Part shown: positions 40,455 through 54,907 of the stretch, in pieces
How positions within the stretch are numbered: the first letter of the stretch is position 1
How the letters are laid out: the number at the start of each line of letters is the position of its first letter
From: Kitasatospora cheerisanensis KCTC 2395
GTDB taxonomy: Bacteria; Actinomycetota; Actinomycetes; Streptomycetales; Streptomycetaceae
Length of the DNA: 64,000 bases
Reading direction: 5' to 3'
Assembly (NCBI RefSeq): GCF_000696185.1
Contig: NZ_KK853997.1
Location: 5,744,149 to 5,808,148 of the forward strand
Made by a program: the position numbers and the translations under genes
The notes under the pieces: model-generated
Database searches by the model: none
What the model was told of the DNA's origin: nothing
What the model saw: the letters and a program-made list of their open reading frames with translations, nothing else

Positions 40455-41546
40455 TCAGGAACCGCACCCACCGCCGCCGCAGCTCGAACCGCACGAACTG
40501 GACGAACCGCACGAGTGCGACGACCCGCAGGAGTGCGAGGAGCCCCCACCGGAGTGCGAGGAGCCCCCGCAGGAGTGCCCGCCCGAGTGGCCACCGGAGT
40601 GCCCGCCCGAGTGCCCGCCGGAGCCGCCCGGGGAGCTGGACGAGCCGCACGAGGAGCCGGCGCTCCCGCACCACGCCCCGCTCGCGGCCACCGCCCCGGC
40701 GTCCGACTCGCTGCCCGACCGCGAGGACCGCGACGACCGGCCCGCCTTCACCAGCGACGGCCGCACCGCCGCGCCGCCGCCGAACGCCTCGCGCAGCGGC
40801 CGGTCCTCGGACGCCGTCAGCGCCGCGGGCCCGTCCAGGGCGAACGCCCCGACCAGGGCGGCGTGCCGGCGGTCGAGGCCGCGCGGCTGCCACGGGCTGC
40901 TGCCGCGCACCAGCTGCAACTGGCGCTCGCCGGCCGGCGTGATCCGGGCCTTCGGCGGCCGGGCCACCAGGAGGTGCACCGCGGCGACCACGGCCAGCGC
41001 CCCGAAAGCCAGGAACGGCGGAACCCCGGCGCCCACGCCCGGCCCGGGCCGCCACCGGACGGTGGCGACCGTCCCGAGCACCAGCGTCACCAGCAGCGCG
41101 ACCACCACCAGCCGGCGGGCCCGCCACGCCGCCCGGAGCGCGTCCGGCCGGCGCAGCAGGCCGCGGGCGGCCAGCGCGTCACCGATCCGCTGCACCTCCG
41201 GGCTGCCCGGCACGGCGGCCCGCAGCACCGACAGGTCCCGCCCCGCACGGCCGCCGACGGCGGTGACCAGCACCGTCTCGACCGGGTCGCGCGGCGCCGG
41301 GTCGGTGACCGTCACCCGGTGCGCCCGGGAGACCACCACCCGGCCCTCGCGCTCCATCCGCAGCAGCGCGGTGTCCACCGCGCGGGCCGGACCGCCGGCC
41401 AGGAACGCGGCGTCCAGCAGCGGCATGCCGCGGCCCGGCAGGCCCTGCGGATCGGTGACCCGGCGGCAGCGCCGGTCGAAGACGGTGGCGACGGTCATGG
41501 CCAGCGCGACCAGGACCAGTGCGACAACGAACTGCGTGTTCCACAT
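40455..41546 (-). CDS. TIGR04222-type membrane protein with Cys/His/Gly/Ser-rich tail (candidate MNIO substrate)
   Basis: 363 residues from ATG 41546. Helices lie at about 5-22, 146-163 and 177-195, with the TIGR04222 domain between and around them. Residues 290-363 are low complexity: four GGHS repeats (309-325), then SSHSCG twice and SSCG units, ending GGGGCGS. The tail has eight Cys (293, 300, 326, 340, 346, 352, 356, 361) and seven His. It resembles a repetitive, membrane-tethered precursor for a Cys-modifying enzyme. The MNIO gene two ORFs upstream in the same operon is the obvious modifier. Metal binding by the tail is inference. Confidence 0.85.
   Translation of the reverse strand: MWNTQFVVALVLVALAMTVATVFDRRCRRVTDPQGLPGRGMPLLDAAFLAGGPARAVDTALLRMEREGRVVVSRAHRVTVTDPAPRDPVETVLVTAVGGRAGRDLSVLRAAVPGSPEVQRIGDALAARGLLRRPDALRAAWRARRLVVVALLVTLVLGTVATVRWRPGPGVGAGVPPFLAFGALAVVAAVHLLVARPPKARITPAGERQLQLVRGSSPWQPRGLDRRHAALVGAFALDGPAALTASEDRPLREAFGGGAAVRPSLVKAGRSSRSSRSGSESDAGAVAASGAWCGSAGSSCGSSSSPGGSGGHSGGHSGGHSGGHSCGGSSHSGGGSSHSCGSSHSCGSSSSCGSSCGGGGCGS
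40458..40670 (-). repeat. Tandem Gly-Ser-His/Cys codon repeats
   Basis: Degenerate 12-18 bp repeats encode the GGHS, SSHSCG and SSCG units of the TIGR04222 protein's tail. Confidence 0.8.
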
Positions 41547-41581
41547 TCCCCCGTGCGTCCTTTCGTTCGGCGGTGCGGTGG

Positions 41582-42019
41582 TTACGGGTGGGCCCGGGCG
41601 GTGCGGCGCGGCAGCAGCCGGCCCCACCGGCTCGCGGCCGGGCGCAGCAGGCGGCGCAGCGCCGGGTGCCAGGGCGCGGCCGGCGCGGCGTCCAGCGCCC
41701 AGTCGGCGAAGGCGCGGGCGTCGGCCCGGAGGCCGCCGGTGAGCGGCCGGCCGGCGGCGTAGCGGCGGAACAGCGGCGCGAAGTCCGCGCCGAGCAGCTC
41801 CGGCAGCTCCGGCATCAGGTGGCCGACGGTCTCCCGCCGCTTGGCGAGCAGCCCCTCGGACTGGGTGCGCAGCTGCGCCGGGTCGAAGCCGGCCGGGGCG
41901 GGGCCGCCGGCCACCAGGGCGGTCAGCAGCTCCTCCTGACGGGCGGCCAGGTGCCGGCGGGCCAGCGCGAGTTCGGCGTCGGCACGGTCGCGGATCAGGT
42001 ATTCGTCAAGCTCGGACAC
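41582..42019 (-). CDS. Small helical partner protein of the DUF692 enzyme (unknown family)
   Basis: 145 residues from GTG 42019, with GGGAGGAG upstream inside the end of the MNIO gene; the two genes overlap by 14 bp, indicating tight coupling. It is mainly helical and charged: [20 protein letters not shown], a Leu-rich middle ([23 protein letters not shown]) and [20 protein letters not shown] near the C-terminus. No metal ligands or signal peptide. Position and size match the partner proteins that accompany MNIO enzymes (DUF2063/MbnC/TglI-like recruiters), but no clear homology to those can be claimed from sequence alone. Confidence 0.7.
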
Positions 42020-43975: not shown

Positions 43976-46090
43976 TCACTCCACGTCGACGCCGTGCGCG
44001 CGGGCCAGCCCCGCCAGGCCGTCCGACCAGCCCTGGCCGATGGCACGCAGCTTCCAGCCGTCGGCCGGGTGCCGGTAGATCTCCGCGACCACCATCGCCG
44101 AGACCGCCGGATCGGCGGGCGGCCGGAACACCCAGCGCCCGGGGCCGGCGGCGAGCTCCACGGCCGGATCGACCAGGTCCGCGCAGGTGGCGTCGGAGTC
44201 GGTGTCGAGGTTCACCGACACCGCGATCCGGTGAACGGCGGCGGGGAGGCGGCCGGGGTGGACGACGGCGCTGCCGTCGCCGGGCTCCAGGACGACGGCT
44301 CCGTTCGCCGCGGTCGGCTGGTGGTAGAAGACGAAGTCCTCGTCGGTGCGCACCTTCCCGTCGGAGCCGAGCAGCAGCAGCGTCAGATCGGCGTCCGCGC
44401 CGCCGGCCCGGAACCGCATCCGCACCTCGCCGTCGGGCAGCGCGGTGTTCTGACCGGGCGTCAACTCCGCGGCGGCCGGCCCGGAGGCCCGCTGGGCCGG
44501 GATCGTGCCCGGCCCCAGCCGGCCCGGCAGGCCGTGCTCGCGGAGCAGGGTGAGCAGCATCGGCCCGTCGACCAGGGTGAGCGGCTGCCCCTCCGCGTGC
44601 TTGCGCGAGCCGGGCCCGAAGCCCGAGGTGGTGACCAGGATGCCGCGGTTCGCGCCCTGGCGGCGCATGGTGGACTCCAGGTCGCGGACGGCGCTGGGGG
44701 AGACGGTGTGCCGGTAGCGCTTGGCCTGGATGACGATCTTCCCGCCGGTGATCGGGTCCGGGTCCTCGGCGAGCACGTCCACGCCCTCGTCGCCGCTGCG
44801 GGCCGTGGTGCTGGTCCGGAAGCCGCGGCGGCGGAACAGTTCGGCGATCAGCTTCTCGAACTCGATCGGGTCCATGGCGAACAGGTCCGGCTCCTCGCCG
44901 TCCCCGGCGGAGGTCGCGGCGGCCGGGATCTCGGCCACGGTGTCGGCCTTCTCCGGCCGGGCGGAGATCCGGCCGCCGAGCGCCTCCAGGAAGCATTCCA
45001 GCGGGGCGACCCGGTCCAGGGCCAGCCCTGCGAAGGTCTCCCGGTCCACCTCCACCGCCAGCAGGCAGCGGTCGCCCTCCTGGCCGGTCGCCGGATCCGG
45101 GGCCACCACCACGCCGTTCAGCCCGACCGTGGCGATCGTCCGGCCGGTGTCGGCGCGGAACACCTCCGCCAGCACTCGCAGCGCGCACTGCGCCAGCACC
45201 TCGCGGTAGATCTCCTTGCGCTGGGTGGCCGGCCGGGCCACCTCGTCCTCCCGGTCGTCGGAGCGGACGTAGCGGTACCTTCCGACCGTCGGCACCACCT
45301 CGTACGGCGGCAGCTCCCAGCGGACCACCAACCGGCGGGTGTCCGCGTCCCAGGAGGTCTCGCCGTCGGTGGGGAAGCCGTCCGGCCAGTCCTCCCGCCA
45401 GTCGATCACCGCCTCGAAGTACTCGGCGACCGCTGCCGCTTCGCCGGCCCGCAGCCGCTGCGCGAGCATCCCCGCCTGGGTCGATTGCCCGGCCAGCAGC
45501 CGGTGCCGCTCGGCCGCCCACGCGTCGTACTGGGCCCGGTAGTCGGCGAGTTGACGCTGCCGCTGCTGCTCGGCCGCCCACGCCGCCTGCCAGTCGTACT
45601 CGAACCTGGCCCGGGCGTGCGCGGCCTGCTCCTCCCACTGGCGGCGCGCGGCCGGCTGGTAGGCCTGGGGGCCCGTCAACGGCGGCACCAGGTACCAGTT
45701 CTGATCGGGCATCGGCACCGGCTCACCCAACGGGCCCGGGTCGAACGGCGGAACGGCGCCCTGCCCGCCCCGGCTCTGCTCCGTCAGCGAGAACCCCGGA
45801 CCGGCCAGCCCCGCCGCCAGCACGCCGCGCAACTCGGCCACCCGGTCGTCCAGTTCGGCCGTCCGCCGGGCCGCGTCCGCGTCCCGCTGCTGCTGGTACG
45901 CCTTCAGCGCCTCGCGCTCACCCCGCGCCGCGGCCCGCTGCGCCTCGCGCTGCGCCCGTTCGTAGTCCCGCTGTTGTGCGGCCGCGGCCTTCCGCTGGGC
46001 CTCCGCGCGCTGGTGCTGTGCACGCTGCGCCTCCGCCAGTACCGACCACACTCCGGAAGACCGCCGCCGCGCCACGCCCGCCCCACCCAC
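43976..46090 (-). CDS. Mrr-type restriction endonuclease-TerD fusion with N-terminal coiled coil
   Basis: 704 residues from GTG 46090. Residues 15-90 and 145-200 are Ala/Gln/Arg/Glu-rich coiled coil. Residues 225-375 form an alpha/beta region with no recognised motif. An Mrr_cat nuclease domain (about 405-520) has FEKLIAELFRRRGF, SGDEGVDVLAEDP (Asp438) and VIQAKRYRH (Gln455, Lys457), the D-QxK active site of type IV-like enzymes. Residues 545-704 are a TerD-like Ca-binding domain (DADLTLLLLGSDGKVRTDEDFVFYHQP, SVNLDTDSD, WKLRAIGQGW). A DNA-cutting unit joined to a stress-signalling TerD fold suggests defence or damage response. No methylase or partner gene is adjacent. Confidence 0.85.
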   Translation of the reverse strand: MGGAGVARRRSSGVWSVLAEAQRAQHQRAEAQRKAAAAQQRDYERAQREAQRAAARGEREALKAYQQQRDADAARRTAELDDRVAELRGVLAAGLAGPGFSLTEQSRGGQGAVPPFDPGPLGEPVPMPDQNWYLVPPLTGPQAYQPAARRQWEEQAAHARARFEYDWQAAWAAEQQRQRQLADYRAQYDAWAAERHRLLAGQSTQAGMLAQRLRAGEAAAVAEYFEAVIDWREDWPDGFPTDGETSWDADTRRLVVRWELPPYEVVPTVGRYRYVRSDDREDEVARPATQRKEIYREVLAQCALRVLAEVFRADTGRTIATVGLNGVVVAPDPATGQEGDRCLLAVEVDRETFAGLALDRVAPLECFLEALGGRISARPEKADTVAEIPAAATSAGDGEEPDLFAMDPIEFEKLIAELFRRRGFRTSTTARSGDEGVDVLAEDPDPITGGKIVIQAKRYRHTVSPSAVRDLESTMRRQGANRGILVTTSGFGPGSRKHAEGQPLTLVDGPMLLTLLREHGLPGRLGPGTIPAQRASGPAAAELTPGQNTALPDGEVRMRFRAGGADADLTLLLLGSDGKVRTDEDFVFYHQPTAANGAVVLEPGDGSAVVHPGRLPAAVHRIAVSVNLDTDSDATCADLVDPAVELAAGPGRWVFRPPADPAVSAMVVAEIYRHPADGWKLRAIGQGWSDGLAGLARAHGVDVE

Positions 46091-52935: not shown

Positions 52936-53110
52936 TCCGGAGGTCCGAAACAGCCCGTCATGTCGTGGTTCTGCCACAGTCTCGCCGTCCCGGACCGGGG
53001 CGGCGGGGCGGCGGCGTAGGGTGGTGCGCGGCCGGCCCGGTGCCAGGACGCTCCTGGCGCGCCCGGTCGCGTGCGAGGGCCGGGGCGACCCGGCGGAAGG
53101 GGTGGTCGGT

Positions 53111-53689
53111 GTGTCGGTGAACCTGGCCAAGGGTCAGAGCGTCAGCCTGGCGAAGTCCAGCGGCGGGGAACTGAGCGTGGTCCGGATGGGCCTCGGCTGG
53201 AAGTCCGCTCCGGGCAAGCGCGGCTTCTTCAGCCGCCGCCCGAAGGAGATCGACCTGGACGCGTCCGCGCTGCTGTACGACGGCAGGGCGATGAGCGACG
53301 TGGTGTTCTTCTCGCACCTGGTCAGCAACGACGGATCGGTGCAGCACACCGGCGACAACCTGGTCGGCGGCGCCGGCGGCGAGGACGACGAGAGCATCCT
53401 GGTGGACCTGACCAAGGTGCCGCGCCGGGTGACCCAGATCGTGTTCACCGTCAGCTCGTACAGCGGCCAGAACTTCCTGGAGGTGCAGAACGCGCACTGC
53501 CGGCTGGTCGACGAGAGCACCGGCAAGGAACTGGCCCGCTACGAGCTCACCGGCGGCGGCAACCACACCGGGCAGATCATGGCCAAGGTGGAGCGGGACG
53601 GCACGGGCTGGAAGATGACCGCGATCGGCGCCCCCGCCAGCGGCCGCACCTTCCGGGACATGCTGCCGTTCATCGAGCCCTTCCTGTAG
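53111..53689 (+). CDS. TerD family protein
   Basis: 192 residues from GTG 53111, behind GGAAGGGG. A single TerD domain: LAKGQSVSLAK, IDLDASALLYD, HTGDNLVGGAGGEDDESILVDLTKVPRRV, FTVSSYSGQNFLEVQNAHCRLVD and MAKVERDGTGWKMTAIG. The acidic residues in the DLDAS and GDNLVGGAGGEDDE loops are the Ca2+ sites of the family. TerD proteins belong to stress and metal-resistance modules, here directly upstream of a terC gene. It is a stand-alone TerD, unlike the fusion at 43976. Confidence 0.92.
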   Translation: MSVNLAKGQSVSLAKSSGGELSVVRMGLGWKSAPGKRGFFSRRPKEIDLDASALLYDGRAMSDVVFFSHLVSNDGSVQHTGDNLVGGAGGEDDESILVDLTKVPRRVTQIVFTVSSYSGQNFLEVQNAHCRLVDESTGKELARYELTGGGNHTGQIMAKVERDGTGWKMTAIGAPASGRTFRDMLPFIEPFL

Positions 53690-53923: not shown

Positions 53924-54907
53924 ATGGACGTTTCCGCAGGCCTGTGGGCCGGCACCATCGCGGTGCTGGCCCTGTTGATCCTGGCCGATTTCTTCATCGG
54001 CGGCCGCAAGCCGCACGAGGTCTCCATCAAGGAGGCCGGGATCTGGACGGCGGTCTGGGTCGTGCTGGCCCTGCTGTTCGGCGGTTTCCTGGCCTGGTAC
54101 GGCGGTGGGAAGCCGGCCGGGGAGTTCTTCGCCGGCTACATCACCGAGAAGTCGCTCAGCGTCGACAACCTGTTCGTGTTCATCCTGATCATGGGCAAGT
54201 TCGCGGTGCCGAGGATCTACCAGCAGCGCGTGCTGATGTTCGGCGTGATCATCGCGCTGGTGCTCCGCGCGGTGTTCATCGCCGGCGGTGCGGCGCTGGT
54301 CTCCAGCTTCTCCTGGGTGTTCTACCTGTTCGGCGCGTTCCTGGTGTGGACGGCCTGGAAGCTGATCAAGGAGGCCCGGGCCGAGGAGGAGGGCGAGGAG
54401 GACTTCGAGGAGAACCGCCTGCTCAAGTCCATCCAGAAGCGCGTCCCGTCCACCGAGCACTACCACGGCACCAAGCTGTTCGTCCGTGAGCACGGCCGCC
54501 GGCTGATGACCCCGATGCTGATCGTGATGATCGCGATCGGCACCACCGACGTGCTGTTCGCGCTGGACTCGATCCCGGCCATCTTCGGTCTCACCCAGGA
54601 CCCGTACATCGTCTTCACCGCCAACGCCTTCGCGCTGATGGGCCTGCGGCAGCTGTACTTCCTGATCGGCGGCCTGCTGAAGAAGCTGGTCCACCTGTCC
54701 TACGGGCTGTCGGTGATCCTCGGCTTCATCGGCGTGAAGCTGGTGCTGCACGCGCTGCACGAGAGCGGCGTGCACGTGCCGGAGATCAGCATCCCGGTCT
54801 CGCTGGGCTTCATCCTGGTCACCCTGGCGGTCACCACCGTCACCAGCCTGATCGCCTCGCACCGGCAGAACGAGGACTCCGACAAGCCGGAGAAGATCGA
54901 AGCCTGA
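53924..54907 (+). CDS. terC: TerC-family membrane protein (probable Mn2+ export/metal homeostasis)
   Basis: 327 residues with about eight membrane helices. The two family motifs with membrane-embedded acidic residues are EKSLSVDNLFVF and GTTDVLFALDSIPAIFG. A charged cytoplasmic loop is at about 145-190 (EEEGEEDFEENRLLKS). TerC proteins are linked to tellurite resistance clusters and, in the Alx/MeeF type, to manganese export coupled to protein secretion. The yybP-ykoY leader strongly favours the manganese role. It lies downstream of terD with its own regulated leader and ends at a strong terminator. Confidence 0.92.
   Translation: MDVSAGLWAGTIAVLALLILADFFIGGRKPHEVSIKEAGIWTAVWVVLALLFGGFLAWYGGGKPAGEFFAGYITEKSLSVDNLFVFILIMGKFAVPRIYQQRVLMFGVIIALVLRAVFIAGGAALVSSFSWVFYLFGAFLVWTAWKLIKEARAEEEGEEDFEENRLLKSIQKRVPSTEHYHGTKLFVREHGRRLMTPMLIVMIAIGTTDVLFALDSIPAIFGLTQDPYIVFTANAFALMGLRQLYFLIGGLLKKLVHLSYGLSVILGFIGVKLVLHALHESGVHVPEISIPVSLGFILVTLAVTTVTSLIASHRQNEDSDKPEKIEA

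What the first reader, a model, noticed from the sequence alone, without database searches (positions are those of the whole stretch)
43976..46090. Mrr-type nuclease fused to TerD with a long coiled-coil N-terminus
Domain order is coiled coil - unknown alpha/beta region - Mrr_cat with intact D438 and Q455-x-K457 - TerD. TerD proteins form stress and phage-related signalling modules, and Mrr enzymes cut modified foreign DNA. A single polypeptide joining both suggests Ca2+- or stress-gated DNA cleavage, possibly anti-phage or damage related. It sits next to the MNIO locus and lacks a methylase, as expected for a type IV-like or self-controlled nuclease.
Basis: partly seen in the sequence, partly recalled or inferred. 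Interest (0 to 1): 0.6.

Follow-up and report, generated by a model that had tools for sequence, protein, structure and literature searches.

The report
Restriction nuclease with swappable TerD domain
This gene makes a DNA-cutting protein of a known phage-defence-like family that has gained a stress-response (TerD) domain at its end, and related bacteria carry two different versions of that extra domain on the same cutter, which suggests it acts as an exchangeable control switch.

Summary
The minus-strand gene (43976-46090; start more likely GTG at 46075, 699 aa) encodes a coiled coil, an unclassified alpha/beta domain, Mrr_cat (2.8e-31) and TerD (2e-20). The fusion is no oddity of this genome: in 72 of 150 Streptomycetaceae genomes (own included) one match runs from residue 24 or earlier to 701 or later, and 77 of the 80 best loci of genome contigs carry TerD. 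The part before TerD matches PADLOC's mREase_IV family over its length, which also occurs without TerD on plasmids and phage contigs. Main new point: this lineage's TerD groups with TerDs of DUF4236 proteins (100/100), not with those of related fused nucleases, and one common origin is rejected (p-AU 2.4e-5), while the nucleases are kin. So a TerD was added or exchanged at least twice. Ca2+ gating is weakened: the acidic loop is absent from 80 of 80 relatives. MNIO adjacency is lineage synteny. Best reading: a stand-alone type IV-like nuclease regulated by its TerD. Signal, substrate and anti-phage role are untested.

The parts
43976..46075 (-). Mrr_cat-TerD fusion gene, 699 aa, GTG start (frame open to GTG 46090)
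45827..46051 (-). first long helix of the N-terminal coiled-coil hairpin (residues 9-83)
   Evidence: AlphaFold2 model
45449..45655 (-). second long helix (residues 141-209)
44906..45448 (-). middle alpha/beta domain (residues 210-390), no clear solved relative found
44543..44878 (-). Mrr_cat nuclease domain (residues 400-511)
   Evidence: Pfam PF04471, E 2.8e-31
44855..44857 (-). conserved Glu407 in the first nuclease helix
   Evidence: invariant in 55 aligned sequences
   Evidence: invariant in 55 aligned sequences
   Evidence: Q450 and K452 invariant in 55 aligned sequences
44453..44542 (-). variable linker between nuclease and TerD (residues 512-541)
   Evidence: low pLDDT 524-531; residues 521-541 have the highest dN/dS of five segments in five of six pairs
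43979..44452 (-). TerD domain (residues 542-699), of the DUF4236-TerD type
   Evidence: Pfam PF02342; fold; tree

Best explanation
It is a single-gene, type IV-like DNA endonuclease with an added regulatory domain. Shown by computation: a coiled-coil hairpin, a middle domain and an Mrr-type PD-(D/E)XK nuclease form a chassis also found alone in other bacteria and on phages; in Streptomycetaceae a C-terminal TerD is joined through a variable linker, and TerDs from at least two different TerD branches sit on that chassis. Inferred: the coiled coil holds an oligomer (Mrr is reported to switch between inactive tetramer and active dimer), the middle domain reads the DNA target, and TerD is a ligand- or partner-sensing lid that keeps the nuclease off until a stress or infection signal, probably not Ca2+ bound at the canonical site, is present. 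The likely benefit is restriction of incoming DNA, or sacrifice of the infected cell.
For: Domain matches and fold. Active-site pattern in 80 of 80 relatives. TerD under purifying selection: dN/dS 0.07-0.37 in six pairs. Whole-length PADLOC mREase_IV match in 55 of 55 aligned members. TerD of this lineage is 52.6% identical on average to five DUF4236-TerDs, against group means of 26-31% to other Mrr-fused TerDs; common origin of all Mrr-fused TerDs rejected, p 1.0e-7 on the quick tree and 2.4e-5 on the careful tree without the longest branches, while the fused nucleases and three TerD-less kin form one side at 100. TerD-less kin: L134, L140, L163. No partner gene kept across lineages, so the protein should work alone. 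Parent form on contigs with portal, repressor and replication genes. TerD proposed as sensor of nucleotide-like signals: passages in PMC7159879 and PMC7824862. Mrr oligomer switch: passage in PMC11279042.
Against: No activity, ligand or phage test exists here. In lineage A the gene sits at a fixed spot among housekeeping genes (7 of 8 loci), and the Pfam families shown for 88 neighbours of lineages B and C are mainly metabolic, transport and regulatory (25 of 75 families shown; PADLOC), which is not a defence island. The model's pTM of 0.54 gives no support for a fixed TerD-nuclease contact. Pfam showed no known modified-base reader. PADLOC's 'type IV' is a label, not a test. The tree tool warns that long branches meet at the canonical and DUF4236/lineage-A TerDs.
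Confidence: 0.5

Rival explanations
1. Ordinary type IV-like restriction enzyme; the middle domain and nuclease do all the work and TerD is a passive or stabilising appendage.
For: TerD-less close kin exist; the same chassis occurs without TerD on plasmids and viral contigs. Linker is variable.
Against: TerD was joined or exchanged at least twice, is kept in 77 of the 80 best relatives and is under purifying selection.
Confidence: 0.22
2. TerD is a targeting domain: it docks the nuclease on a Ter/TerC membrane or stress complex instead of sensing a small ligand.
For: Other Ter proteins are described as parts of a multi-component system with membrane parts (PMC7824862 passage); a terD-terC pair lies about 7 kb away in the window.
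Against: The gene is not in a ter operon, and in 11 of 20 compared loci none of the other window genes used as queries was found within the 7-10 kb on either side.
Confidence: 0.17
3. Ca2+-gated nuclease.
For: One canonical TerD, of Klebsiella, is described with calcium-binding properties in the title of PDB 2kxt.
Against: The acidic loop is missing: 0 of 80 relatives match the motif, while four TerDs of this genome (L005-L008) do; L003, L004 and one domain of L002 of this genome do not (alignment).
Confidence: 0.05
4. Housekeeping DNA repair nuclease of Kitasatospora, not defence.
For: Fixed core-chromosome place near murC and uvrB in lineage A.
Against: One relative keeps only residues 1-97 at the same place and others lack it there; 44 of 150 family genomes have no match at 1e-30; kin are on plasmids and viral contigs.
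Confidence: 0.06

Closest known systems
PADLOC mREase_IV model PDLC03663 (predicted type IV restriction enzyme)
   Same: Whole-length match, residues 21-529 to profile 26-540 of 544, E 3.5e-67; 55 of 55 aligned members match
   Different: The match ends before TerD; here a 158-residue TerD follows
E. coli Mrr (EcoKMrr)
   Same: Mrr_cat nuclease with D and QxK
   Different: N-terminus here is a long coiled coil plus an alpha/beta domain; no Mrr_N match in Pfam at E 1 (that EcoKMrr carries Mrr_N is recalled)
MspJI / AspBHI modification-dependent endonucleases
   Same: Nuclease fold, Z about 12, 22-24% identity over 120-125 residues
   Different: Only the nuclease part aligns; no SRA-like reader domain among Pfam matches (that these enzymes have one is recalled)
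TerD proteins with solved structures (3ibz, 2kxt)
   Same: TerD fold, Z 20.7 and 15.3
   Different: N-terminal part of the Pfam profile (positions 1-36) unmatched and acidic loop missing; fused to a nuclease, not in a ter operon
DUF4236-TerD proteins of Streptomycetaceae (L077, L078, L079, L086, L087)
   Same: TerD 50-55% identical to lineage A's TerDs
   Different: No nuclease; DUF4236-like N-terminus, below Pfam's cut-off in the two scanned; middle regions not detectably related
CARF-type sensor plus REase effectors (Can2, Card1, Cdn1)
   Same: Works like, if right: a sensor domain controlling a PD-(D/E)XK nuclease; nuclease folds align at Z 7.6-9.6
   Different: TerD in place of CARF, at the other end; no second-messenger synthase recognised among the window neighbours scanned. 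Not a member

Membership tests
PADLOC mREase_IV (PDLC03663) | whole-length profile match | tested here: met
   E 3.5e-67, 26-540 of 544
Mrr_cat nuclease (PF04471) | score above cut-off | tested here: met
   108.5 bits against 21
Mrr_cat nuclease (PF04471) | D and QxK active site | tested here: met
   pattern G[VI]D..Q[AV]K in 80 of 80; invariant in 55
EcoKMrr-type enzyme | Mrr_N winged helix (recalled) | tested here: not met
   not among Pfam matches at E 1; model shows a coiled coil there
Type IV restriction enzyme | no cognate methylase beside it | tested here: met
   16 predicted neighbours in 36.9-54.9 kb scanned by Pfam, no DNA methylase
Type IV restriction enzyme | cuts modified DNA only | not testable with these tools
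   needs an assay
TerD (PF02342) | score above cut-off and TerD fold | tested here: met
   73.5 bits against 25.3; Z 20.7 to 3ibz
Ca2+-binding canonical TerD | acidic loop GDNxTGxGxGDD (that it binds Ca2+ is recalled) | tested here: not met
   0 of 80
Ter operon component | encoded with other ter genes | tested here: not met
   no ter gene among immediate neighbours in the window; the terD-terC pair is 7 kb off
CARF/SAVED-REase effector | second-messenger binding domain of those folds | tested here: inconclusive
   none among Pfam matches; middle domain has no clear fold match

The most novel reading that the evidence does not exclude
TerD here is an exchangeable infection or stress sensor: it binds a small, nucleotide-like signal and switches on a pre-made DNA endonuclease, making a one-protein counterpart of CBASS or type III CRISPR effectors, with different TerD types tuned to different signals.
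Probability: 0.22. Interest if true: 0.75.

Novelty: new variant of a known kind. Interest (0 to 1): 0.45.

Why it matters
What TerD domains sense is, to my knowledge, still open. A TerD that has been put at least twice on the same nuclease gives a simple read-out, DNA cleavage, with which a TerD ligand could be looked for. It would also add a widespread, stand-alone nuclease to the defence repertoire of Streptomycetaceae.

Tried and rejected
Ca2+ gating: tested by the acidic-loop motif, weakened. MNIO link: rejected by synteny.

Homology of the middle domain with the middle part of DUF4236 proteins looked likely by eye; profile comparison gave probability 0.2 of 100, so dropped. That profile has only 5 similar rows, so a distant link is not excluded.

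Fold of the middle domain: best Foldseek E 0.015 and best Z 7.5 against PDB; one viral match at E 4e-4, TM 0.48, to an uncharacterised siphovirus protein. Left as unclassified.

Defence-island context: among 88 neighbours PADLOC matched 37 families, at most 4 members for any (mad3), others with 2 (PD-T4-6 models, mad6, PglW, a kinase model C3a189); I did not take these as partners, since no family recurs across lineages. The 88 are the genes within two places of the centre, 80 aa or longer, in 22 of the 33 lineage-B and -C loci tried (C here also holds Embleya and Yinghuangia). A first gene caller gave antisense frames and was replaced (then 56). One search lost its centre gene in L161, L134 and L140. 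Three of the 17 window query frames, used again, were mis-set by me (second TIGR04222 protein, RibD-like, AFG1-like); the others carry the synteny result. The viral-neighbour set used 66 of 94 frames on 12 of 47 contigs.

Single TerD acquisition followed by divergence: rejected by AU test. A single fusion event as judged from the nucleases alone is not rejected (p 0.45), and the grouping of lineages A and B (87) is below the tool's star, so exchange of TerD and separate gains cannot be told apart; nor can the direction between DUF4236 proteins and lineage A. In one search one lineage-A row (L020_h) was binned with Streptomyces and makes that group's maximum of 59.9%. L039 gave no protein and was left out of the alignments.

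Print: the listings (capped at 8 to 25 titles except where fewer) showed no paper on an Mrr-TerD fusion. The review of Ter systems that would most likely mention it (Anantharaman 2012) is not held, so prior description is not excluded.

Full report
The feature. Frame 43976-46090 on the minus strand codes 704 aa. Relatives begin at the next GTG, 46075 (MARRR.., M-SRRS..), so I use 699 aa. Pfam gives Mrr_cat and TerD well above cut-off. The AlphaFold2 model, made from 55 sequences of this window, of genome contigs and of viral contigs, has mean pLDDT 89.6 and pTM 0.54: two long helices, an alpha/beta domain, nuclease, a low-confidence linker, TerD. So the domains are well predicted but their mutual placing is not.

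The chassis. Residues 21-529 match PADLOC's mREase_IV PDLC03663 over nearly its full length, as do all 55 aligned members. TerD-less relatives are annotated as restriction endonuclease on Agrobacterium and Methylobacterium plasmids, and 47 viral contigs encode relatives whose matches end by residue 528, before TerD. Matches among 66 neighbours on 12 of those contigs include portal, repressor, CII-like, anti-repressor and replication proteins. The nuclease fold is nearest AF1548 (Z 14.3), AspBHI and MspJI (Z about 12). The middle domain folds confidently alone (pLDDT 90.3) but matches nothing solved clearly.

Spread of the fusion. Of 150 Streptomycetaceae genomes, own included, 106 match at 1e-30, a count that includes TerD-only, TerD-less and partial matches. 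Read from that table, 72 have one match from residue 24 or earlier to 701 or later (two of these with one stop inside), and six more (G036, G120, G137, G105, G041, G059) have two matches that cover both parts within one open frame. Across the phylum only 13 of 396 genomes match, and the four full-length fusions are all in the own family. Of the 80 best genome-contig loci (of 490), 77 have TerD; L134 (Streptacidiphilus jiangxiensis), L140 (Dactylosporangium aurantiacum) and L163 (a Micromonosporaceae MAG) stop just after the nuclease. One lineage-A fusion comes from a record titled Saccharothrix sp. ST-888 (L101).

Two TerD types on one chassis. On the tree of the part before TerD (57 rows), 51 rows, 48 with TerD and 3 without, form one side at 100; lineage A (the window, K. 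griseola, K. phosalacinea and others) and lineage B (K. indigofera and others) join at 87, which the tool does not star. On the TerD tree, lineage A's TerDs join those of five DUF4236-TerD proteins at 100/100, apart from the TerDs of lineages B and C; holding all Mrr-fused TerDs together costs 90.9 log units, p-AU 2.4e-5 (quick tree with all rows 1.0e-7). The tool warns of long branches meeting where canonical TerDs join the lineage-A/DUF4236 group. Mean identities agree with the tree: 52.6% to DUF4236-TerDs, group means of 26-31% to the other Mrr-fused TerDs. The shared stretch begins in the linker by eye (LxPGQxxxLP). So the control domain was gained or exchanged at least twice; the direction is open. 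The TerD evolves under constraint, dN/dS 0.07-0.37 in six pairs; the nuclease (0-0.17) is more constrained in five of the six.

Context. In nine of the 20 loci that I chose, the order PPOX-chdC-..-MNIO-GNAT-[gene]-msrB-murC is kept; in the other 11 none of the other window queries is near (three of the 17 query frames were mis-set). PPOX and chdC are my names; Pfam says amine oxidoreductase and chlorite dismutase. In lineage B an ABC transporter pair (by eye, from the sequence) follows in 4 of 6 loci; in lineage C the commonest neighbour family is seen in 11 of the 26 loci with a called centre. One genome (G057, L228) keeps only residues 1-97 between msrB and GNAT, and G126 (L231) has msrB and GNAT without the gene between them, although it has a full-length copy elsewhere. 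The neighbour families shown are mainly metabolic, transport and regulatory. One plasmid copy sits near an AIPR-family and a PIN gene; another is among metabolic genes and a transporter; the third has no annotation. Hence: a stand-alone gene, held long in one lineage, lost or moved in others; MNIO is a bystander.

Ca2+. Against 2kxt and 3ibz the fused TerDs lack the loop that reads GDN.TGEGDGDDE or similar there. A motif test finds it in 0 of 80 relatives (three of which have no TerD), in 0 of 5 DUF4236-TerDs and 0 of 4 short Mrr-TerDs, and in 5 of 10 other TerD domains, among them L005-L008 of this genome. So loss of the loop is common in this branch and not special to the fusions. That this loop carries the Ca2+ ligands is my recollection, not a call.

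How it may work. Shown: domain anatomy, intact active site, two TerD origins, no fixed partner. Inferred: coiled coil for assembly, middle domain for target reading, TerD for control. Mrr of E. coli is described as an inactive tetramer that turns into an active dimer (passage of PMC11279042), so a TerD or coiled coil that governs assembly is a natural guess. TerD is described as a possible sensor of nucleotide-like signals (passages of PMC7159879, and PMC7824862). I put 0.5 on a TerD-regulated, type IV-like nuclease.

Standing. The parts are known and two fused proteins are annotated as restriction endonuclease on public plasmids. The exchange of TerD on the chassis I did not find in print, with the limits told under Tried and rejected. 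New variant of a known kind, interest 0.45.

Noticed in passing
window 53021-53689 (+) and 53924-54907 (+): A stand-alone terD and a terC follow uvrB about 7 kb from the fusion gene.
   Followed up: partly
window 40455-41627 (-): TIGR04222 membrane protein with a Cys/His/Ser/Gly-rich C-terminal tail, near the MNIO gene and its partner frame; a candidate MNIO substrate by its tail.
   Followed up: no
L080 6419-7831, L081 6850-7935, L082 6144-7262, L090 6578-7690: Short Mrr_cat-TerD paralogues without coiled coil and middle domain in genomes of the window's genus; the one in L082 has Arg in place of the Gln of QxK (Pfam on L081).
   Followed up: partly
L077, L078, L079, L086, L087: DUF4236-TerD proteins of 609-705 aa with TerDs near those of lineage A; function unknown.
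   Followed up: partly
L085 5756-6910; G088:C1:237229 and 9909713: A broken copy, its TerD running out of frame, lies in two equal matches equally far from both ends of one contig, as if in terminal repeats.
   Followed up: no
L228 4181-4471: Remnant of the fusion gene (residues 1-97 only) at the syntenic place between msrB and GNAT.
   Followed up: yes
L074: On an Agrobacterium Ti plasmid the TerD-less nuclease lies beside an AAA-domain protein and near a DNA methyltransferase.
   Followed up: no
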